Made by a program: the position numbers and the translations under genes | The notes under the pieces: generated by a model | Database searches by the model: none | What the model saw: only the letters and a program-made list of their open reading frames with translations | What the model was told of the DNA's origin: nothing | IMG/VR virus record: IMGVR_UViG_3300025098_000066 | Coordinates: 1-52,969 of that record | Source of the DNA: a virus | DNA: 52,969 nucleotides | Strand: one strand, 5' to 3' | In this document: positions 1 to 52,969 of the stretch, in pieces | Numbering within the stretch: the stretch's first letter is position 1 | Layout of the letters: each line of letters opens with the position of its first letter

Positions 1-10
1 TTACAATTAA

Positions 11-136
11 CCCTTGCTAATACACTAACTAAGTGCTACAATTGTGTTATTGTTAAACTAGGTATAACCACACACAATGAACGATACTCCTGATAAGTAC
101 AGGTCGTTCGTCTTAACAGCTCAAAATGTAATACGA
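11..136. repeat. left copy of the 126-bp terminal direct repeat
   Basis: Identical base for base to 52844-52969 (offset 52833). The outer 10 bases of the left end match the other copy only partly (mismatches at 3, 4 and 10). The repeat holds a promoter and the first 20 codons of the gene at 77. The simplest reading is an assembly overlap of a circular or circularly permuted genome; a true short terminal repeat is the alternative. Confidence 0.95.
14..42 (+). promoter_or_regulatory. sigma70-type promoter upstream of the virion/lysis genes
   Basis: TTGCTA (14-19), a 17-bp spacer, then TACAAT (37-42) with an extended -10 TGC. The core AAGTGCTACAAT recurs almost unchanged at 41608-41619 and 30693-30705, so it belongs to a phage-wide promoter class. 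It would drive the gene at 77 and the following plus-strand operon. Confidence 0.7.
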
Positions 137-13036: not shown

Positions 13037-14680
13037 CTATGCCTCACACGCACTACATTCCATGATGTTCTTAGCCGCCTCTTGCGCAGGGTTAGTCCCC
13101 CGCTGGTAGTACAGAGATTTTACGCCAAGTTCCCATGCGGTGAACATTAGTTCATTCACGTCTTTTAGCGGTGTCTTAGGATCGATTAAGAGATTTAATG
13201 ATTGAGACTGATCAATATGCTTTTGCCGTGCCGCCGCTTGCTGAATAACCTCAAGTGGAGATATTTCACTAAACGTCTTGAACACTGACTTCTCCGTAAG
13301 ATTTAGAAAAGTTAAGTGCTGAACAGACCCGTCTTTTTCTAAGATGCTTCGCCAAGTATCCCGGTCATTCTTGTTATATTTCTCAAGCAATTCTGCAAGG
13401 TAGGGGTTGCGATAGGTGAACTTACCTTTAGCTAAATCTTTGGTGAAGTAGTTAGACCGTAGTGGTTCAATAGAAGGTGAAACCTGGCCCAGGACAAAGC
13501 TACTTGTGGTGGTAGGAGCAACCGCCATGAGGGTAACATTTCGGCGTCCGTAACCTTCTAATAATTCAGGCTCACCAAACCACTCAGCAAGCTGCTCAGA
13601 TGCCTTAATGGCTTTTTCTTTAATAGTTTTAGCAATCTGTACGTTTAAAGATTTAGCCTCAAATCCTTCAAAGGGTATCATCTTGGATTGTAGGTACGAA
13701 TGCCACCCCAATATCCCTACACCGATTGCACGTTGCCGCACGGCAAAATTTCGAGCATGCTCCATGAAAGGCATATTCTCAGTCTTAATAATGTACTCTT
13801 CCATTACGGCGTCTAGAAAATATACTAGTAGTTCTACTGCGTCAGTATCTTTCCATTCATCATAGTGAAGAGCATTCATACTGGACAAGTCACAGACAAA
13901 GCTTTCGTCGTAAGTAGAAGACAAGGCTATCTCTGCACAGAGATTAGACCCATTAATCTTACGGTTTTTATCTTTATACACGTTAGGTGCATTGTTATTA
14001 ACTGTGTCGCTGAAAACTATATAGGGGTAACCACTCTCGAAGCGTTTTCTCATTATTTTACGCCATGTTTCCTGACGTTTTTTATCGCCTTTCTTGACCC
14101 CATTCATAAAGTCATCCGACACGCAGACGCCTAGGGATAAATCTTGAATGTCTGAACCTTCTTCACGAAAGAATAGGAATTCATCAATATCAGGGCTGTC
14201 TGCATCCTGGTAAACTGCGGCATTACCCCGGCGCACAGAACCTTGGGATATGCTAGTTACTGCCGTTTGCACTAACTTAGCAGGTAGGTGGCATCCATCT
14301 GCATGACCACCGCCCCGAATCTGACTGCCACGGGGGCGCACGTCACCTAAGTAGGCAGACGTACCCGCACCATGTTTTGTCATCATCCCAATCTCAGCTT
14401 GCTTGTACAGCATACTGGCTACATCATCCTGAACATAGCTGTTATTGCAGCTAATGGGTAAACCTGTCTGACGTGAAAAGTTAGCAAAGATAGGAGTGGC
14501 AATACTATAGAAACCCTTACCCATGTATTCATAGAACCGAATACCAGCACTCTTATCGTCTAGATATTTACCTAGAGCGTCAGCAAGGTCACGATAACGG
14601 CCTTCGACTGTTTCACCTTTTTCTAAACCGCCACGTTCCATTACCTGCCGTGCGGCATCATTTGCCCAATCAAAACTCAT
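13037..14680 (-). CDS. nrdA: ribonucleotide reductase class I alpha subunit
   Basis: 547 residues. Reduces ribonucleotides to deoxyribonucleotides for phage DNA synthesis. Active-site residues are all present: Cys78 (SCNNSY), Asn246, Cys248 and Glu250 (SNLCAEI), Cys263 (FVCDLSS), the radical-transfer Tyr pair 524-525 (SLYYQRG) and the C-terminal thiol pair Cys542/Cys545 (CSAC). The protein is about 200 residues shorter than E. coli NrdA and starts close to the catalytic barrel. It therefore lacks the ATP-cone and the dATP off-switch. The ATG overlaps the stop of nrdB, so the two subunits are coupled. Confidence 0.95.
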   Translation of the reverse strand: MSFDWANDAARQVMERGGLEKGETVEGRYRDLADALGKYLDDKSAGIRFYEYMGKGFYSIATPIFANFSRQTGLPISCNNSYVQDDVASMLYKQAEIGMMTKHGAGTSAYLGDVRPRGSQIRGGGHADGCHLPAKLVQTAVTSISQGSVRRGNAAVYQDADSPDIDEFLFFREEGSDIQDLSLGVCVSDDFMNGVKKGDKKRQETWRKIMRKRFESGYPYIVFSDTVNNNAPNVYKDKNRKINGSNLCAEIALSSTYDESFVCDLSSMNALHYDEWKDTDAVELLVYFLDAVMEEYIIKTENMPFMEHARNFAVRQRAIGVGILGWHSYLQSKMIPFEGFEAKSLNVQIAKTIKEKAIKASEQLAEWFGEPELLEGYGRRNVTLMAVAPTTTSSFVLGQVSPSIEPLRSNYFTKDLAKGKFTYRNPYLAELLEKYNKNDRDTWRSILEKDGSVQHLTFLNLTEKSVFKTFSEISPLEVIQQAAARQKHIDQSQSLNLLIDPKTPLKDVNELMFTAWELGVKSLYYQRGTNPAQEAAKNIMECSACEA

Positions 14681-15660
14681 TAAAATAGATCCTCACTATC
14701 GAAATCTCTGTTGTTTTTTGCATACTCGACAGGACGTTTCTGAAAGAAATCAGTCATAGTTGCACCATAAGTTTCCTCGTCCATCCACTCAGTTTGATCC
14801 AGAAGTTTTAGTTCTACTTCTGTCATGGGAAGTTCATCAAAGCCGATTGCTTTCATAGCGAGGTTCATGCGACCTTTGGTGTAGGCTTTAAGGATATCTG
14901 CCGAAATAGCTTCACCCTCGTAATCCCCTACCATCCAATCAATGATACTTTCTTCATACTGCACCCCTAGGACGCACTCTTCTTTTACACGCTCAATAAG
15001 ATCATCATCGAACAGTTCAGGGTATTCCTGGCGTAGGGTGTTTATTAAAAGTATACCTGCTTTGGAGTGTAGAAGTTCTTCATTTCGAGTGTACTGAACT
15101 TGCTGGGCGGTATCTTTTAAAACCGCCTTGAAACGATTGAAGTACATAATGGTGTAGAATTGACTGAACAAACTACAGTTTTCTACAAACAACGTGAATA
15201 AAATAAGTGCGTAAACAAACTGTTTACGATCATCATCATATTTTCGATTTAAGTATTTACGAAGGTAAGAAACACGCCCCTGCATAGTAGGCTCTTGTAG
15301 TGCATCATCAAAAGCAGATTGTAGGCCCAAAACGTCTAACAGTTTTTCATACGCCTGGTTGTGGATTACTTCGTTATTACCCATTACCAAGCCCATGTCG
15401 GACATAGACGGGTGGGGAAAGGTTTTACCTAAGTCAGCCCAGAACCTTTTAACTGCGATTTCAATTTGACCAATAGCTGACAAAGTGCGTACAACTACCT
15501 GCCGTTCTTGATCAGTAAGTTCTGAATGGAATTGGCTGTAATCAGAGCGAAACGAGAATTCGTTAGGTGTCCAAAAACTATGCCATAATGCGTCAATTAT
15601 TTCCTGTGTCCAGGGGTAAGCATTGGGCTTACGGCTTACCTGTTCGTCAAAAAGGCCCAT
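14680..15660 (-). CDS. nrdB: ribonucleotide reductase class I beta subunit
   Basis: 326 residues. Carries the metal site and radical that drive NrdA. Ligand motifs are visible: Glu67 (IGQIEIAV), Glu97 and His100 with Tyr104 (NNEVIHNQAY), Glu160 (FVENC), and Glu195 with His198 (NEELLHSK). The Tyr at the usual radical position is kept, so a tyrosyl-radical enzyme is likely. The ligand usually Asp in E. coli (Asp84) is Glu67 here. It directly precedes nrdA with stop/start overlap. Confidence 0.94.
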   Translation of the reverse strand: MGLFDEQVSRKPNAYPWTQEIIDALWHSFWTPNEFSFRSDYSQFHSELTDQERQVVVRTLSAIGQIEIAVKRFWADLGKTFPHPSMSDMGLVMGNNEVIHNQAYEKLLDVLGLQSAFDDALQEPTMQGRVSYLRKYLNRKYDDDRKQFVYALILFTLFVENCSLFSQFYTIMYFNRFKAVLKDTAQQVQYTRNEELLHSKAGILLINTLRQEYPELFDDDLIERVKEECVLGVQYEESIIDWMVGDYEGEAISADILKAYTKGRMNLAMKAIGFDELPMTEVELKLLDQTEWMDEETYGATMTDFFQKRPVEYAKNNRDFDSEDLF

Positions 15661-25620: not shown

Positions 25621-25771
25621 CTGTTTTTCTTAGCTCCCAGCGGATGGCAGTAACTAAATCGATAAACCGTTCAGTGAGCGGGTAAATATGATATGTAGGA
25701 ATATCCGCTGACTTAAATACCTTCCTCAGTTCATCTTCAAAGGCTGCTCTTGCCTCATTTACATTTCTCAT
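25610..25771 (-). CDS. small protein coupled to integrase
   Basis: 53 residues, starting MRNVNEARAAFEDELR, helical and mildly basic at the end (WELRKTDGR). The ATG overlaps the integrase TGA (ATGA). Being co-translated with the integrase makes an accessory role in recombination conceivable, but no winged-helix or excisionase motif is visible. Confidence 0.6.
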   Translation of the reverse strand: MRNVNEARAAFEDELRKVFKSADIPTYHIYPLTERFIDLVTAIRWELRKTDGR

Positions 25772-26874
25772 CTTCCGTGCCTTTTTCTTGCTGCGGTTGC
25801 TGCCATGCGGCGGGTTTTCTTGACGTAGACACTCACCACTTCCCGTGAAGTATGGCCTGTAAGCGCCATGATTTCGTCTTCTGTAAGACCAGCTTCTCCA
25901 GCCTCTGTAGCGCCAGTACGGCGTAAGTCTGAGATCTTGAGTTCTTCGGGTAGCCCAGCGGCTTTGCGCACCTCTGCTACCGTCTTATAAGCCCACCGAG
26001 TGTAAGGCCGACCTGTACGCTCATTAAGAATAATGAAGTCATTTTTGCCGCCACGGGTTAGGCTGTCGAGCCGTTCCTTCAGTTGCTCATTCACAACAGG
26101 GACAGACACTAGGTTGCCTTGCGGTTTACGAACCGTGCGGCTCTTCTCCTGCACAAAGTCGAAGAAGCCATCATCTTGGAGATCATAATTGCCCCAACGG
26201 ATCTGTCGCATGTCTCCAATACGCTGGCATAGATCGTAGCACATCAAGGCTAACGTACCTATCGACCACAGATCCATTTCGTCAGCTTTAGCTACAAATA
26301 TATCTATGTGTTCCTTCTCCCAGCGAACATCCCGTGAGGGTAGAGTGGCTAGACCCATCTTAGAAAAGGGGTTGGAACGTGTAAGACCTAAACGGAAACC
26401 TACGAACCACACACGGCGTAAAACTTTACACACATGGTTTGCACGATGCTCACTCACATCGTTACACAGTTGTTTGTGTAAGCTTTCCACTACTTTTACG
26501 GTGATATTGTGGTGCAGGGTCTGACCAAAGACGATATTTGAGCGTCCTATGCGAGTATTGATCACAGAATCTATAAGTTGCTGGTATGTATTCTTACTAT
26601 TGACCGAAAGACGGTCCCAATTGGATGTATTTTTATACGCAGCTATTAATCCATTAACAGAGTTCTCACTGATGTGCTTTTGCCTATCAATCCCTCGTTT
26701 GTAATCTAGAAATGCCTTCTCCCATTCCATGCAGCGGTCAACGGCGTCTTTTTTCTCTTGGTAGCTTTCATATTTGACCAGGAGTGCTTCTCGCACCGCC
26801 TTAGATGGGTTTGCACCCCAAGATATTTGACCTGTGGACAGCACATGCCGTTCTAAGTATTTAATCGATCCCAT
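25768..26874 (-). CDS. int: tyrosine recombinase (integrase)
   Basis: 368 residues from the ATG at 26874, which has GGGAGG about seven bases upstream. A frame 48 codons longer runs back through the promoter and small-RNA region and is rejected. Catalytic residues are Arg218 (LCQRIGDMR), Arg318 (SDLRRTG), His341 (LTGHTS) and Tyr350 (SVYVKKT). The first residue of the HxxR box is Ser315 instead of His. An N-terminal helical SAM-like domain precedes the catalytic part. It would recombine the tRNA-like core at 24632 with a host tRNA gene. Confidence 0.93.
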   Translation of the reverse strand: MGSIKYLERHVLSTGQISWGANPSKAVREALLVKYESYQEKKDAVDRCMEWEKAFLDYKRGIDRQKHISENSVNGLIAAYKNTSNWDRLSVNSKNTYQQLIDSVINTRIGRSNIVFGQTLHHNITVKVVESLHKQLCNDVSEHRANHVCKVLRRVWFVGFRLGLTRSNPFSKMGLATLPSRDVRWEKEHIDIFVAKADEMDLWSIGTLALMCYDLCQRIGDMRQIRWGNYDLQDDGFFDFVQEKSRTVRKPQGNLVSVPVVNEQLKERLDSLTRGGKNDFIILNERTGRPYTRWAYKTVAEVRKAAGLPEELKISDLRRTGATEAGEAGLTEDEIMALTGHTSREVVSVYVKKTRRMAATAARKRHGR

Positions 26875-26907
26875 TCTACAACCTCCCGTGGTTATGCGGA
26901 TAGGATG

Positions 26908-26937
26908 ACCATAGTTGTGGTATCGAGTCGGAGTCAA
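26908..26937 (-). promoter_or_regulatory. integrase promoter with overlapping ACCATA operator-like site
   Basis: On the minus strand TTGACT (26937-26932), an 18-bp spacer, then TATGGT (26913-26908); a start near 26901 leaves a leader of about 27 bases. The -10 is one arm of ACCATAGTTGTGGT (26908-26921), a near-copy of the site at 32086. A regulator binding there would block integrase expression. Confidence 0.6.
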
Positions 26938-26952
26938 TAAGAAAATAATTAC

Positions 26953-26982
26953 TTGCACTTTGTTAAGTGATTGTGCTAATCT
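26953..26982 (+). promoter_or_regulatory. promoter of the predicted small RNA
   Basis: TTGCAC (26953-26958), an 18-bp spacer and TAATCT (26977-26982) preceded by TGC, an extended -10. The expected start at about 26989 is exactly the first paired base of hairpin 1 in the small RNA. It is divergent from the integrase promoter 16 bp away. Confidence 0.6.
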
Positions 26983-26988
26983 TAGCTC

Positions 26989-27061
26989 GTGAACATCCTC
27001 CCTGTTCACACTGTTCACTGTGTAAGAACAGCCCCCCGGTTTTATAGTCGGGGGGTTTTTT
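26989..27061 (+). ncRNA. predicted small RNA: three stacked hairpins, anti-Shine-Dalgarno loop
   Basis: About 73 nt. Hairpin 1: GTGAACA (26989-26995), loop TCCTCCC (26996-27002), TGTTCAC (27003-27009), a perfect 7-bp stem. Hairpin 2: CTGTTC (27011-27016), nine-base loop, GAACAG (27026-27031). Hairpin 3: CCCCCCG (27032-27038), ten-base loop, CGGGGGG (27049-27055), then six T, a strong intrinsic terminator. The loop of hairpin 1 is complementary to GGGAGG, the ribosome sites of int (26881-26887) and primase. Loops with CCUCCUCCC-like sequence are known in alphaproteobacterial sRNAs (CcsR of Rhodobacter, cuckoo RNAs). Existence and targets are inferred. Confidence 0.65.
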
Positions 27062-43800: not shown

Positions 43801-45465
43801 ATGCCCGATCAAATTCAATCCTTCAAGCTAGTCAGTAGCGGTGGTCTGAACAGTAACGAAAATCATCTAGATCTTTCGGACAATAGACCAGGATCAGCCA
43901 CACGACTTGTTAACTACGAACCAGGCCTCTTCGGGGGCTATCGTCGTATTGAAGGCTACTCACAATTTGATAGCGACTACGGCGAAGTGACGGTTGATGG
44001 ACAGACTACAGGACAGGGCAAGGTCTTAGGTCTGGCTATCTTTAAAGAAGACGTAACGAATACCACTAAGATTATTGCCGCCCGTCAGGATGCAGGGGCT
44101 AATACTTACAGCTTCTACTTCTACACTAAATCAATTGGCTGGCGTAAGTATACACTAGACCACTCAGTATCTCGTCCGATGACCCTGAACGGATTAACCG
44201 TAGATAAGCTGCGTCACGCTACTTTTAACTTTGGCACAGGTAACCACATCGTCTTCGTAGACGGGGTAAACCCTGCTATCGTATTTAACGGGGCAAACTG
44301 GAAAGAAATCAAGTCTTCTCACTCTGGTGGATACGATGCTGCAAATAATACTGCGGGTGGCCCACAGGCGCTGAACGCCCCTGCTTTGGTAGATGTATTT
44401 GAGAACCATGTTTTCTTATCAGGTCACGAAGCTACCGCAGCGGCAGTAGCACATAGCGCACCTAATGATCCGTATACTTGGACTACTGCGGCGGGTGGTG
44501 GACAACTGGCTTCTGGCTTTGATGTAGTACAGATTAAACCGTTCCGTGATGACTTATTCGTTTTCGGCGGCAACTCAATCAAGAAGATTGGGGTAGATGG
44601 CTCTGGTAACTTTACTCTCGCACAGGTCACCGCAAACGTAGGCTGCGTGGCACGGGACAGTGTACTGGAAATCGGCGGGGATCTGATGTTCCTCGCACCT
44701 GATGGCTTCAGACCGTGCGCTTCAACTTCTCGCATTGGGGATGTGGAGCTTGAAACATTAAGTAAGCCCATACAAGCCACTCTAGTTGATATTATTAAGA
44801 ACGAAGACATGACTACGCTGAATGGCGTTGTGATTAGGTCTAAGTCTCAAGTCAGGTATTTTATCGGGGACGGTGGGGTTTTGGCGGGGGATAGTCTTGG
44901 TATTATCGGTGGATTAACTAATAGCTCTGGTTCTATTGGTTGGGAGTTTGGGGAACTTTTAGGTATTCGAGCTTCTTGCTGCACTAGTGGATACATTGGA
45001 ACCACAGAGTTCATATTACACGGTGATTATGACGGCAAAGTATACAAGCAAGAAGACGGCATAAGCTTTAATGGTGAAGATATCGTAAGTATTTACGCTA
45101 CACCTTATTTAGATTTTGGCGAGACAGAACAACGCAAAATAATGCGAAAGATAAATACATTCATTCGGGCAGAAGGCCCGTTAGAAATGTTGCTTTCCAT
45201 GACCTACGATTGGGGTGACGGGGCTGTTTCAACGCCATCCACATACTCACAGACATCTTCAGGAGCGCCTACCCAATACGATGGTAGGAACATTAATTAT
45301 GCTGCCACAAACGTACTGTATGGCGGCTCATCTAAGCCAATTATGACCAGCGACATTCAAGGATCAGGTTTCTCTGCACAAGCCACTTTTGTGACCGTAG
45401 GGCAGACGGAATCATTTTCTATTCAAGGTATGGTCTTTGAATTTACGGCGGCAGGGAGAAGATAA
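43801..45465 (+). CDS. tail tubular protein B / nozzle (T7 gp12-like)
   Basis: 554 residues, beta-rich with propeller-like strands. The N-terminus (GGLNSNENHLDLSDNRPGSA, then RLVNYEPGLFGGYRRIEGY) is the recognised opening of podovirus nozzle proteins. Regions such as FDVVQIKPFRDDLFVFGG and GDLMFLAPDGFRPCASTSRI fit beta-propeller blades. It builds the tail tip that seals packaged DNA. Confidence 0.82.
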   Translation: MPDQIQSFKLVSSGGLNSNENHLDLSDNRPGSATRLVNYEPGLFGGYRRIEGYSQFDSDYGEVTVDGQTTGQGKVLGLAIFKEDVTNTTKIIAARQDAGANTYSFYFYTKSIGWRKYTLDHSVSRPMTLNGLTVDKLRHATFNFGTGNHIVFVDGVNPAIVFNGANWKEIKSSHSGGYDAANNTAGGPQALNAPALVDVFENHVFLSGHEATAAAVAHSAPNDPYTWTTAAGGGQLASGFDVVQIKPFRDDLFVFGGNSIKKIGVDGSGNFTLAQVTANVGCVARDSVLEIGGDLMFLAPDGFRPCASTSRIGDVELETLSKPIQATLVDIIKNEDMTTLNGVVIRSKSQVRYFIGDGGVLAGDSLGIIGGLTNSSGSIGWEFGELLGIRASCCTSGYIGTTEFILHGDYDGKVYKQEDGISFNGEDIVSIYATPYLDFGETEQRKIMRKINTFIRAEGPLEMLLSMTYDWGDGAVSTPSTYSQTSSGAPTQYDGRNINYAATNVLYGGSSKPIMTSDIQGSGFSAQATFVTVGQTESFSIQGMVFEFTAAGRR

Positions 45466-48252: not shown

Positions 48253-49848
48253 ATGGCGATTAAAGTAGGCGGTACAACCGTCATAAATGATAGCAGACAG
48301 CTTAGTAACATTACTTCTGTAGATGCGACTACTGTAGCTGCCTTGGGTACGGCTGGTGTTGGTGGCGGTGGGACTGCTGAGCTAACAGCGGCGTCTACAT
48401 TAACAGCAGGGCAAGCAGTGATTATTAATACTAGCGGTCAGGCAGCAGGTATTACAAAAACAATAGGTAGTGTTTCTTCGGTTGGTAGTAGTCAGTTTCA
48501 ACTTCCCTATGGCGGCAGTGACATTATTGCTAATGCTGCTGCCTATGACTCAATAAATAAAAAAATTATTGCTTTAGCTAGAAACTCAAACGGCTGGGTT
48601 CAATGGTGGCATGGGAATGTTGTTACAGATACTGGTTCTGAAGCTGTCGCAAGCCAAGGCGATAGTGTATATCCAGACAGCTCAAACATTGGCGCAAGTG
48701 TAGCCATGACTTTTGATCCCGACTGCAACGTAAATGGGTTTTTTTTAATTGTTATAAGTGATGACTCTAACAATAATACAGAAATGCGAACAGCCTATTT
48801 TAATGGTAACAGTAGAATATCTAGTAATAACGTTTCGTTAGCTAATAGAGTATCAGGCAATGGTGCATATGCCTTGGTTTATGACACTAGTCTACAAGCA
48901 CATATACTGATTTCACAGCTACATAGCGGTTCTCCAGTTATCAATGTGATTACATTGAGCTCTAGTGGGTATCCTACAAGCAGACTTCAAGCTACAATGT
49001 CTAATACTGGTGGAAACTATAAATTCCCAAAGGTTGGAACAGACGGAAATGGACAATTTTTAGCTATTCTTGGAGATGCTGGAGGCAGTGCTTCCTATGC
49101 CTATCCTTTTAAAGTAACAGGAAGTATTGGAGCAGGTTTTTCTATATCCCAAGGAACGAGGCAAACTTTAGACAGCAGTAACGCTATAAATAACTCTAAT
49201 AAACAAAGCGTAAAATTTGATACCCACAGTGGAAAATTTTTAATTTCTTATGGTACAGGTACATCCTCAGTTAAAGTAAGAAGTGCTACAATTAGTAATA
49301 ATAGTTTAACACTTAATACTGCGGTTACAGCGTCTTCTTTGGAAGGGCATAATAGTTTACTTGAGGATAAAAATGCTAAAAGCGCAATTATTTATGCAGG
49401 GGGGTATAATAACGCTACCTTTCAGTACAGGTCTATTGACGTAGCCACCAACGGAAATGTTACTCTTGGAACGGCTAGCGACTTAACAGGGTACAATGCT
49501 TACTTCTCAGGTTCAGCTAACTTTAATGTTCTCTCACATCTTAATAACCCTGATGTATCATTGTATACTGTGATTGGGAATGGAAATAACGCAAATGATT
49601 GGGAAAGTAGTAGTCATAAATTACCCATTACAAGTGACTCTTCTAAATTTGTAGGTTTTGCAACGGCTGGAATTAATAGCGGGGCGTCAGGGGATATAAC
49701 TGTGATTGGCGGTGTTAATGAACAACAGTCAGGGCTTACAGCGGGGTCAAAACACTACGTTAATAGTGGTGGTGCAGTTACCACCGATAGCGGTGGAACC
49801 TACGCAGGTGTAGCACTTTCAGCAACTAAACTATTGGTGAAAGGATAA
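48253..49848 (+). CDS. beta-propeller-like tail protein, receptor-binding candidate
   Basis: 531 residues, Ser/Asn/Gly-rich. The N-terminus (MAIKVGGTTVINDSRQLSNI) is a known fiber-attachment type, followed by repeated blades such as AAAYDSINKKIIALAR and NKQSVKFDTHSGKFLISYG. The end, GDITVIGGVNEQQSGLTAGS then a GVALSATKLLVKG finish, is closely related to the end of the next gene. Likely an exposed host-recognition protein. Confidence 0.68.
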   Translation: MAIKVGGTTVINDSRQLSNITSVDATTVAALGTAGVGGGGTAELTAASTLTAGQAVIINTSGQAAGITKTIGSVSSVGSSQFQLPYGGSDIIANAAAYDSINKKIIALARNSNGWVQWWHGNVVTDTGSEAVASQGDSVYPDSSNIGASVAMTFDPDCNVNGFFLIVISDDSNNNTEMRTAYFNGNSRISSNNVSLANRVSGNGAYALVYDTSLQAHILISQLHSGSPVINVITLSSSGYPTSRLQATMSNTGGNYKFPKVGTDGNGQFLAILGDAGGSASYAYPFKVTGSIGAGFSISQGTRQTLDSSNAINNSNKQSVKFDTHSGKFLISYGTGTSSVKVRSATISNNSLTLNTAVTASSLEGHNSLLEDKNAKSAIIYAGGYNNATFQYRSIDVATNGNVTLGTASDLTGYNAYFSGSANFNVLSHLNNPDVSLYTVIGNGNNANDWESSSHKLPITSDSSKFVGFATAGINSGASGDITVIGGVNEQQSGLTAGSKHYVNSGGAVTTDSGGTYAGVALSATKLLVKG

Positions 49849-49852
49849 CCCA

Positions 49853-51661
49853 ATGACAAAAGCAAGAGACTTAGCAAACCTTATAGCAGCGGGTAATCCT
49901 CTGGCAGATGGGGCTATTAGTGTCGCAGAGATTAGTGACCTCACAGCTTCAGCGGCAGACCTTAATAAACTTGATGGTGTAACTGCAAGCACAACTGAAA
50001 TCAATAAACTGGATGGTCTTACTTCTAGTACTGCCGATCTTAACAACGTAGCGGGCATCAACTCATCAGTACAAACTCAGTTAAATGCTAAAGCACCTCT
50101 AGCAAGCCCAACACTAACTGGTACGGTTACTATGGGTGGTACTACTTACCCTAACTCTGATGGTACTGAAGGTCAGGTGCTTACTACGAATGGCTCTGGT
50201 GCGGTTAGCTTTGCTGATCCCGCTGGTGGTGGTAGTGCAGACTTTGTAGCTAGTGGTGCTATAGCTAATGGTGATGTTGTTGTACTGAATAGTAATGGTA
50301 CTGTTAGTGTGGCAGGGTTTGCTGACCCTAGTGTAGGTTCGCCTACAACATTTACTAACGGTAACCCACCAGAAAAAGATGTTGTATTTGATAGTTTAAA
50401 CAATAAAGTTGTAGTTGTTTATAGGGACATGGGTAACAGTAGTTCTGGAACTGCTATTGTCGGGACTGTAAACGGAAGCTCTATTTCGTTTGGTACTCCT
50501 GTTGTTTTTAAGGCAGGTCTAATCGAATCTATATCTGCTACGTTTGATACTAATAATAACAAAGTGGTAGTAGTTTATGGGGACAATACTAATTCTAGTT
50601 ATGGTACTGCTATAGTAGGGACTGTAAATGGTACGTCTATCTCTTTTGGAAGCCCTACCGTTTTTAACAGTATCGGTACAAGCGACACATCCTGCACGTT
50701 TGATACTAATAATAACAAAGTAGTAGTAGCCTATAGATCGTATCAAACGTACCCCTACGATGGTACAGCTATAGTAGGAACGGTAAGCGGTACGTCTATC
50801 TCTTTTGGTACTGCTACTGTATATGAATCAGCACGGACTAGCTATAATTCTGCCGTATTTGATAGCAGTAACAACAAAATTGTTATTGCATATGTTAGTT
50901 CCTCTAGTACCGAACGGGCTGTAGTAGGAACTGTAAACGGAACCTCAATAAGTTTTGGTACACCTGTTACTTTTAGTAGTGAAGGAGCAGCGTACTTATC
51001 TGCAGCGTTTGATAGTATCAACAATAAAATAGCCATTGCTTACTATGGAAGTGCAGGTGCTGGTAAAGCTCTTGTTGGGACTGTGAGCGGAAACTCTATC
51101 AGCTTTGGCACGACAGTAACTTTTAATGTTAGGGCTGCTTATATAACAACAACTTTTGATGTAGGTACAGGTAAAGTCGTTGTAGCATATCGTGATTTTT
51201 CAACAGGAAAGCCTTTTATTATAGTAGGAACCATAAGCGGAACCTCAATAAGTTTTGGAACAGCGTTACAGTATAGTACTAATAATAGTTCTTGGTTGGC
51301 CTCTGCATATGACAGCAATAGTAATAAAGTAATAATAGCTGACCAAAATAATAATGGTTCTACTCTTGATGGGAAAGTCGTTGTGTTTGACTCTGGCTCA
51401 ACCAACGCCTCATCCTACATAGGCGTAGCAGACGGAGCTATATCTAACTCAGCTACAGGTAAGATCACTATCAATGGTGGTGTTAACGAAGGGCAGTCAA
51501 GCCTAGCAGTAGGCACAACTTACTACGTTGCTGACAACGGTGACCTACAAACAACTAACAATGGACGCAAGATTGGCAAGGCTATCTCTGCAACTAAGTT
51601 ACTCGTCAATTCTAACATGAGCGGTGATGAGATGAACGCATACCTTGGAGGTCTGGTATAA
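49853..51661 (+). CDS. beta-propeller tail protein with about eight blade repeats
   Basis: 602 residues. The N-terminal stalk has ADLNKLDGVTAST-type repeats (35-70). Residues about 180-480 contain tandem blades of roughly 45 residues with FDTNNNKVVVVY, then GTAIVGTVNGTSISFG. The C-terminal ITINGGVNEGQSSLAVG and KIGKAISATKLLVNS match the previous protein's end. The repeat structure suggests a six- to eight-bladed propeller presented on the fiber. It probably binds the host surface. Confidence 0.72.
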   Translation: MTKARDLANLIAAGNPLADGAISVAEISDLTASAADLNKLDGVTASTTEINKLDGLTSSTADLNNVAGINSSVQTQLNAKAPLASPTLTGTVTMGGTTYPNSDGTEGQVLTTNGSGAVSFADPAGGGSADFVASGAIANGDVVVLNSNGTVSVAGFADPSVGSPTTFTNGNPPEKDVVFDSLNNKVVVVYRDMGNSSSGTAIVGTVNGSSISFGTPVVFKAGLIESISATFDTNNNKVVVVYGDNTNSSYGTAIVGTVNGTSISFGSPTVFNSIGTSDTSCTFDTNNNKVVVAYRSYQTYPYDGTAIVGTVSGTSISFGTATVYESARTSYNSAVFDSSNNKIVIAYVSSSSTERAVVGTVNGTSISFGTPVTFSSEGAAYLSAAFDSINNKIAIAYYGSAGAGKALVGTVSGNSISFGTTVTFNVRAAYITTTFDVGTGKVVVAYRDFSTGKPFIIVGTISGTSISFGTALQYSTNNSSWLASAYDSNSNKVIIADQNNNGSTLDGKVVVFDSGSTNASSYIGVADGAISNSATGKITINGGVNEGQSSLAVGTTYYVADNGDLQTTNNGRKIGKAISATKLLVNSNMSGDEMNAYLGGLV

Positions 51662-52531: not shown

Positions 52532-52828
52532 ATGGCAATGATAAAATATGTAAATGGCGTTGAAGTAGAATTAACAGCCGAAGAAATTACGCAAATTGAA
52601 ACGGAACAAGCAGCGTGGCTTTCTGGTGCAAATGACCGTGTGGCAGAACGTAATCGCAATGAACGTAACACTATCCTATCGCAGTCAGATTGGACACAGT
52701 TCAACGACAGCCCACTTACAGGCGAGGTGAAGACCTCTTGGGCGACCTACAGGACTGCGCTTCGTAACCTTACGGCACACGATAACTGGCCTAACCTAGA
52801 AGATGCAGATTGGCCTACTAAGCCTTAA
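52532..52828 (+). CDS. tail fiber assembly chaperone-like protein
   Basis: 98 residues. ELTAEEITQIETEQAAWLSG, then RNERNTILSQSDWTQFNDSP and WATYRTALRNL follow the pattern xxRxxxLxxxDWTxxxDxPLxxxxxxxWxxYRxxLRxL of phage tail assembly chaperones. Such proteins help fold the neighbouring fiber. Last gene before the circle junction promoter. Confidence 0.75.
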   Translation: MAMIKYVNGVEVELTAEEITQIETEQAAWLSGANDRVAERNRNERNTILSQSDWTQFNDSPLTGEVKTSWATYRTALRNLTAHDNWPNLEDADWPTKP

Positions 52829-52843
52829 TGTCATTGTAATTAC

Positions 52844-52969
52844 CCCTTGCTAATACACTAACTAAGTGCTACAATTGTGTTATTGTTAAACTAGGTATAA
52901 CCACACACAATGAACGATACTCCTGATAAGTACAGGTCGTTCGTCTTAACAGCTCAAAATGTAATACGA
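52844..52969. repeat. right copy of the 126-bp terminal direct repeat
   Basis: Exact copy of 11-136, including the promoter (-35 at 52847-52852, -10 at 52870-52875). It shows that the last gene of the window reads on into the gene at 77 on a closed molecule of about 52.83 kb. Confidence 0.95.
52910..52969 (+). CDS. 5' fragment of the GNAT-like gene, cut by the window end
   Basis: First 20 codons (MNDTPDKYRSFVLTAQNVIR) identical to the gene at 77-532. Not a separate gene: it is the same locus seen again through the terminal repeat. Confidence 0.9.
   Translation, partial: MNDTPDKYRSFVLTAQNVIR

What the first reader, a model, noticed from the sequence alone, without database searches (positions are those of the whole stretch)
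48253..51661. Two propeller tail proteins sharing a C-terminal module
Adjacent genes have different bodies but related ends (ITxxGGVNExQSxL...ALSATKLLV). This indicates a duplicated scaffold with exchanged receptor-binding blades, a way to alter host range. The second has about eight blade repeats that could expand or contract by recombination.
Basis: seen in the sequence. Interest (0 to 1): 0.52.

Follow-up and report, generated by a model that had tools for sequence, protein, structure and literature searches.

The report
Swappable seven-blade rings on phage tails
Two neighbouring genes of a marine bacteria-infecting virus each carry a seven-bladed, propeller-shaped domain inserted into the middle of a small shared domain, and related viruses exchange, double or lose the whole propeller at that spot, which looks like a modular way of changing what the virus tail can stick to.

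Summary
The two genes and their related ends are real (C-terminal 69 aa: 45% identical, E=2e-17). The reading needs correcting. Both proteins (A 531 aa, B 602 aa) are modelled as seven-bladed propellers (B well, A moderately). B has seven blades, not eight. The shared "C-terminal module" is one half of a small domain whose other half lies before the propeller. It resembles the phage cement family PF09956; A's and B's own C-halves score below Pfam's cut-off, one relative passes, and a natural propeller-free relative matches both halves continuously.

Of 155 distinct complete relatives holding both halves, 144 carry a one-ring insert (355-418 aa), 8 a long insert, 1 a six-blade length and 2 no ring. 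Rings move as units: B's ring is about 90% identical in DNA to one on a different scaffold. In 61 of 62 pairs with like scaffolds and unlike rings, both DNA arms were found and stop near the junctions. Orthologous fibres exist with and without a ring.

Most likely role, inferred: interchangeable receptor-binding heads of tail fibres in an HMO-2011-type, roseophage-like podovirus. Binding and host range are untested. Blade number is almost fixed.

The parts
48253..49848 (+). Gene A, 531 aa: anchor + split scaffold + seven-bladed propeller
   Evidence: ORF; AlphaFold2 model mc3d4e4bc74a8, mean pLDDT 71.5, pTM 0.70
48253..48369 (+). A anchor, aa 1-39 (MAIKVGG type), low confidence in the model
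   Evidence: alignment A3, invariant columns 1-40; pLDDT below 50 at 1-39; DNA of this part shared with relative L202
48370..48450 (+). A scaffold N-half, about aa 40-66
   Evidence: profile hit aa 40-64, 28 bits
48451..49638 (+). A ring, aa 67-462, seven diverged blades
   Evidence: strand list of the model (hairpins counted by me); Foldseek hits to seven-bladed propellers; blade profile sees few blades
49639..49845 (+). A scaffold C-half, aa 463-531
   Evidence: profile hit 81 bits; PF09956 positions 28-92, E=4.1e-4, 21.1 bits, cut-off 24
49853..51661 (+). Gene B, 602 aa: anchor/stalk + split scaffold + seven-bladed propeller + short tail
   Evidence: ORF; AlphaFold2 model m73a725e75a2b, mean pLDDT 77.5, pTM 0.64, ring mostly above 90
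49853..50230 (+). B anchor/stalk, aa 1-126 (MTKARDLA type), mostly pLDDT below 50
   Evidence: first 117 nt shared with L202 while the body is not
50231..50311 (+). B scaffold N-half, aa 127-153
   Evidence: profile hit 48 bits
50312..51406 (+). B ring, aa 154-518: blades at about 177-221, 228-273, 280-327, 333-377, 383-425, 433-477, 484-512, the last closed by a strand near 160-170
   Evidence: blade profile; model; about 80-95% DNA identity to L005:4741-6162 in 60-nt bins over nt 50333-51412
51407..51616 (+). B scaffold C-half, aa 519-588
   Evidence: profile hit 92 bits; PF09956 positions 27-91, E=0.0094, 16.8 bits, cut-off 24
51617..51658 (+). B C-terminal tail, aa 589-602 (NSNMSGDEMNAYLGGLV region), 93-100% identical in L007-L010
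45469..48237 (+). Tail fibre gene upstream, 922 aa
   Evidence: phrog_38058 tail fiber E=4.3e-35
52532..52828 (+). Phage tail assembly chaperone downstream
   Evidence: PF16778 E=1.6e-15

Best explanation
A and B are paralogous tail-fibre proteins built from three parts: a variable N-terminal anchor, a small cement-like (PF09956-like) beta domain, and a closed seven-bladed propeller inserted in a loop of that domain. Shown here by sequence: the scaffold is split by the ring, natural ringless copies exist, rings are replaced, doubled or lost as whole units, and DNA similarity between alleles stops at the junctions. Inferred: exchange happens by recombination using the conserved scaffold halves (and anchors) as homologous arms; the anchor docks the protein to the tail; the ring is the receptor- or glycan-binding head; changing the ring changes which host surface is bound.
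For: Split scaffold: 56 of 56 complete ORFs with a strong C-half in the first set also had the N-half; in the enlarged set 155 have both, 8 more have the C-half itself interrupted, 1 had an N-half just under threshold, 1 had an N-half only. Ringless natural copies: L155 (121 aa, 8-aa loop) and L197, L285 (6-aa loop) and one unit of the fibres L294/L295 (18-aa loop). Empty versus occupied: the empty unit of L294 matches its arms in 6 of 6 compared occupied fibres (78-94% DNA identity), which lie about 1.2 kb apart there, and L295 is also empty (98.6%). Ring transfer: B versus L005:4741-6162, ring about 80-95% DNA per 60-nt bin, C-half 47-61%; protein: blades 76-91%, scaffold 39-56%; in-register blade identity 87 versus 60 shifted. 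Ring replacement: 62 pairs (49 proteins, 12 groups) with scaffold >=80% and ring <=45%, out of 155 pairs with scaffold >=80%; 61 of 62 have both DNA arms, ending at a median +6 nt (IQR 2 to 11) after the N-half and starting at a median -2 nt (IQR -7 to +7) from the C-half. L014 versus L015: arms 93% and 96% DNA, ring without a DNA match in register. Anchor exchange: L007 and L010 bodies 92% identical under different anchors. Tail location: next to tail fibre and tail chaperone genes; in L133, L136, L156, L158 the cassette is the C-terminal end of proteins whose N-terminus resembles the window's own fibre (E 1e-8 to 5e-14), L133 also hits phrog_38058 tail fiber. Fold: best PDB matches of B are seven-bladed Photorhabdus lectins (6rgg, E=5e-9, TMt 0.78).
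Against: No binding, structure or host-range experiment. Junctions were defined from conservation, so breakpoints falling there are partly circular; the stronger arguments are >=90% DNA arms around 23-41% rings and the empty/occupied pairs. Of 104 testable pairs with similar rings on dissimilar scaffolds only 5 (3 groups) pass the in-register control; the other 99 look alike because their blades are near consensus. PF09956 scores of A and B are below the curated cut-off and a PF09956 search of the window genome found nothing. A's model is of moderate confidence. Fold similarity to lectins is also shared with WD40 and sialidase propellers.
Confidence: 0.72

Rival explanations
1. A and B are capsid decoration (cement) proteins that display propellers on the head, not tail proteins.
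For: The scaffold resembles PF09956 Phage cement (21 of 36 C-halves at E<=1, best 7.5e-6); 8 of 36 hit phrog_122 head decoration; weak PDB matches to minor capsid proteins 8giu and 8saj (E 0.003 and 0.11).
Against: Genes lie between a tail fibre and a tail assembly chaperone; the same cassette forms the end of tail-fibre-like proteins in L133, L136, L156, L158; no PHROG or Pfam head match for whole A or B.
Confidence: 0.12
2. No cassette exchange: the ring simply evolves much faster than the scaffold under diversifying selection.
For: Ring and scaffold identities correlate (r=0.39 over 10440 pairs); breakpoints sit at the edges of the conserved scaffold, as a rate change would give; most similar-ring/dissimilar-scaffold pairs fail the register control.
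Against: Arms of 93-97% DNA identity flank rings of 30-41% protein identity; B shares a ring at about 90% DNA with a protein of a different scaffold; rings are present or absent in orthologous fibres.
Confidence: 0.1
3. One reading: single blades are swapped and the number of blades changes by recombination to tune host range.
For: Blades within a ring can be nearly identical (mean pairwise up to 0.94, median 0.58 over 141 ORFs), so single blades are amplified; one ORF (L197:5974-7257) has six blades.
Against: 144 of 145 single-ring inserts are in the seven-blade length class; L003 and L004 show an unchanged ring. The six-blade case has near-identical blades and could be an assembly collapse.
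Confidence: 0.05

Closest known systems
Phage cement family PF09956 (Phage_cement_2, formerly DUF2190 by my recall)
   Same: Same domain signature; the ringless relative L155 matches profile positions 6-92 continuously
   Different: Here the domain is split by a propeller and sits in tail-region genes; A and B themselves are below the cut-off
Lentibacter phage vB_LenP_ICBM2 gp49 (hypothetical protein, 515 aa)
   Same: N-half, C-half and several blades detected; best named viral fold match
   Different: Different virus group (Zobellviridae), unannotated; no function known
Photorhabdus PLL/PHL seven-bladed lectins
   Same: Top PDB fold matches of B; among the top for A
   Different: 11-14% identity; sugar sites not tested; not phage proteins
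Propellers in phage receptor-binding proteins: S. aureus phi11 Gp45 (five blades), PRD1 P2 (five), phiKZ gp131C (seven), as described in passages of PMC4901313
   Same: A propeller as putative receptor-binding part at the virion periphery
   Different: No split cement-like scaffold is described in the passages I read; phi11 has five blades and a stem-platform-tower order
SU10 nozzle protein with a seven-bladed propeller (passages of PMC9509320)
   Same: SU10-like portal and adaptor occur in this window
   Different: The nozzle is an internal tail component; its likely counterpart here is 43801-45465, not A or B (inferred from order)
Cultured roseophages CRP-235, CRP-738, CRP-3, CRP-212
   Same: Portal 69-80% identical; same gene slot after the fibre, with the same anchor types in CRP-235 gp33, CRP-212 gp31 and CRP-738 gp33
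   Different: Of the proteins examined in CRP-235, CRP-212 and CRP-738 none carries ring or scaffold signals

Membership tests
PF09956 Phage_cement_2 | Whole-protein score over the curated cut-off (24 bits), for the window's A and B | tested here: not met
   A and B whole proteins: no hit; C-half fragments 21.1 and 16.8 bits; genome search 0 matches in G000
PF09956 Phage_cement_2 | Same score for relatives of A and B | tested here: inconclusive
   L056 35.5 bits, over the cut-off; ringless L155 23.3 and L197 13.9, both below
PF09956 Phage_cement_2 | Location on the capsid | not testable with these tools
   Gene context and fusions point to the tail instead
Seven-bladed beta-propeller | Seven four-stranded blades with closure by the N-terminal strand | tested here: met
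   B: sequence repeats and model with ring pLDDT mostly above 90. A: model only, moderate confidence
PLL/PHL-type lectins | Sugar-binding sites between blades | not tested
   Only fold similarity seen
Phage receptor-binding protein | Binds a host surface receptor and determines adsorption | not testable with these tools
   Inferred from position, modularity and fold
Phage tail fibre | Tail-fibre N-terminal docking region or tail gene neighbourhood | tested here: met
   Neighbourhood for A and B; fibre N-terminus for relatives L133, L136, L156, L158, not for A and B themselves, whose anchors differ

The most novel reading that the evidence does not exclude
A widespread marine phage cassette system: a cement-like domain acts at once as a structural socket and as a pair of homologous DNA arms, so whole propeller heads are dropped in, replaced, doubled (in the same loop or in a second loop, where a different propeller type can sit) or removed with the reading frame kept, while ring size stays at seven.
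Probability: 0.5. Interest if true: 0.72.

Novelty: new variant of a known kind. Interest (0 to 1): 0.55.

Why it matters
Modular exchange of phage receptor-binding parts is well known in general. What is less usual here is how exact the unit is: the socket domain, its empty form, its occupied form and its double form can all be read in natural sequences, with junctions to within a few nucleotides. That makes the exchange of adhesive heads in uncultured marine phages directly testable, and gives a sequence handle (paired N-half and C-half) to find such heads.

Tried and rejected
Whole A and B against Pfam and PHROGs gave nothing useful. A as tblastn query in the phage collection: no match. N-half fragments against Pfam: 1 of 10 hit PF09956, but at an internal position (48-79) rather than the start of the model, so they do not by themselves place the N-half. 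A naive count of 119 pairs with similar rings on dissimilar scaffolds was rejected as evidence after the register control left 5 of 104 testable pairs. Genome collection: 3 loci, all in metagenome-assembled bins, so no host was learned. Counting blades by profile alone gave 6, 8 or fewer in some ORFs; I used insert length instead, because detection fails in diverged rings and the profile sometimes hits the N-half. Six diverged ORFs with inserts of 402-418 aa were put in the seven-blade class by length and, for L047, L050, L071 and L090, by the alignment; they are not resolved blade by blade. Diversity-generating retroelements were not searched for. Literature: no paper joining cement protein, tail, beta-propeller and inserted; the search for Phage_cement_2, PF09956, cement domain or DUF2190 listed 5 papers, read as listing only. 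This does not show that the system is unpublished.

Full report
What the window is. The record is a virus contig of 52969 bases. Its first and last stretches overlap by 132 bases with one mismatch, and two other contigs (L003, L004) run across the join, so it is probably a complete genome of about 52.8 kb. It encodes an SU10-like portal and adaptor, family A DNA polymerase, ribonucleotide reductase, an integrase and a lysozyme. The closest cultured portals are those of roseophages CRP-235, CRP-738, CRP-3 and CRP-212 (69-80% identity). Passages of PMC6918029 place CRP-3 in subgroup II of the HMO-2011-type phages.

The two genes. A (48253-49848) and B (49853-51661) follow a tail fibre gene and precede a tail assembly chaperone. 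The C-terminal 69 residues are 45% identical (E=2e-17). Shuffle tests give z about 18 for the C-half, 6.6 for a short segment before the ring, 6.7 for the ring and 0 for the N-terminal anchors, with 0 of 500 shuffles reaching the first three. Plain BLASTP of the whole proteins is weak (E=0.005).

Seven blades. B holds six full blades spaced 49-53 residues apart and a seventh completed by an N-terminal strand. Its model has a confident ring (most 10-residue blocks above 90) and a scaffold region at about 60-80. A's model is of moderate confidence (71.5) and I count seven hairpins in its strand list. The best PDB matches of B are seven-bladed Photorhabdus lectins, followed by sialidases and WD40 proteins. 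For A they are WD40 proteins with the same lectins close behind.

The shared end is half of a split domain. I built profiles of the N-half and C-half. In the first set of relatives 56 of 56 complete ORFs with a strong C-half had the N-half. In the enlarged set of 197 loci, 155 distinct complete ORFs had both. The stretch between them was 8 aa in 2, 320 in 1, 355-418 in 144 and 667-767 in 8. Eight more ORFs had a C-half interrupted by a second insert, 1 had a C-half with the N-half at 19.7 bits, and 1 (L060, 196 aa) had an N-half only. The 8-aa cases are natural ringless scaffolds. A further search found L285 with a 6-aa loop, and fibres L294 and L295 whose first scaffold unit has an 18-aa loop.

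What the scaffold is. C-halves of 21 of 36 relatives match PF09956, Phage cement protein (best E=7.5e-6). One relative exceeds the curated cut-off (L056, 35.5 bits). The ringless L155 matches positions 6-92 of 103 without interruption (23.3 bits, cut-off 24), while ringless L197 reaches only 13.9 bits over positions 28-92. The window's own C-halves score 21.1 and 16.8 bits, and a genome search of the window with the family finds nothing. I therefore call the scaffold PF09956-like, not a member.

Rings move as units. (a) Unlike scaffolds, like rings: B and L005:4741-6162 share blades at 76-91% and scaffold at 39-56%. At DNA level the identity is about 80-95% per 60-base bin over nt 50333-51412 and 47-61% in the bins covering the C-half. 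Because near-consensus blades can look alike by convergence, I compared blades in register with blades shifted around the ring. Of 119 pairs (104 testable) only 5 pairs in 3 groups exceed the best shift by 15 points; two of those five pairs are B (in L001 and L003) against L005. (b) Like scaffolds, unlike rings: 62 of 155 pairs with scaffold at least 80% have rings at 45% or less, from 49 proteins in 12 groups. In 61 of 62 both DNA arms were found. The left arm ends at a median +6 nt from the N-half end (IQR 2 to 11) and the right arm starts at a median -2 nt from the C-half start (IQR -7 to +7). Since the halves were defined by conservation, this sharpness is partly built in. (c) Presence and absence: the empty unit of L294 matches six occupied fibres on both sides (78-94% DNA), with the arms about 1.2 kb apart in the occupied ones, and matches the empty L295 over its whole length (98.6%).

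Anchors are exchanged too. L007 and L010 have bodies 92% identical under different anchors. Against L202, a relative with a 97% identical neighbouring protein (43801-45465), DNA similarity covers the fibre gene, the first 119 nt of A and the first 117 nt of B, stops in both bodies and resumes at 52837. Relatives L203 and L204, equally close, carry no ring gene there. Of 80 loci found with that protein I laid out 29.

Second loop and double rings. In eight ORFs the C-half is interrupted by a second insert. In L012 it is a second ring of the same type; in L048/L049 and L145 it is a different propeller repeat with the KPDGTKMY- or NNDGTKMY-like motif. L015, L131, L169 and L200 carry 13-14 blades between the halves.

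Blade number. 144 of 145 single-ring ORFs fall in the seven-blade length class; L197:5974-7257 has six. Rings whose blades average 94% identity with each other exist (L148, L135), so blades are amplified, yet ring size holds. Passages of PMC9218822 describe a continuum of blade numbers in amplified propellers biased towards the family median, so a nearly fixed number is worth noting.

Function. Over 876 blades, variability is highest in the B-C loop (columns 16, 18, 22, 23) and around the D strand and D-A loop (columns 41, 45), and lowest in columns 30-39. I infer that one face of the ring varies most; I had no coordinates to measure it, and which face that is follows general knowledge of propellers. 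The tail role rests on gene context and on relatives in which the cassette ends a protein with a fibre N-terminus. Receptor binding and host-range change remain inference.

Verdict. An ordinary kind of protein (a propeller-bearing tail protein) in an unusually clear modular arrangement.

Noticed in passing
window 5-136 and 52838-52969: The ends overlap by 132 bases with one mismatch, and L003 and L004 span the join, so the record is probably a complete genome although it is classed as linear.
   Followed up: partly
L197:5974-7257: A six-bladed ring with near-identical blades, the only single-ring ORF in the six-blade length class; real variant or assembly collapse is open.
   Followed up: no
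L148:422-2155, L135:3892-5331, L146 three genes: Rings whose blades are 88-94% identical to each other, a sign of recent amplification from one blade.
   Followed up: no
L048:1896-6584, L145:3719-5971: A second, different propeller repeat type sits in a second loop of the scaffold.
   Followed up: partly
L294, L302, L305-L310: Long tail-fibre-like proteins with two scaffold units in series, the first with or without a ring.
   Followed up: partly
window 13037-15660, 25768-27018: Ribonucleotide reductase large and small chains and a tyrosine-type phage integrase; CRP-3 is reported to integrate into a tRNA-Met gene (passage of PMC6918029); no tRNA gene was found in the window.
   Followed up: no
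L117-L119 (CRP-235, CRP-212, CRP-738): The slot after the fibre holds hypothetical proteins with the same anchor types but other bodies; an acyltransferase gene lies beyond it in CRP-235 and CRP-738.
   Followed up: partly
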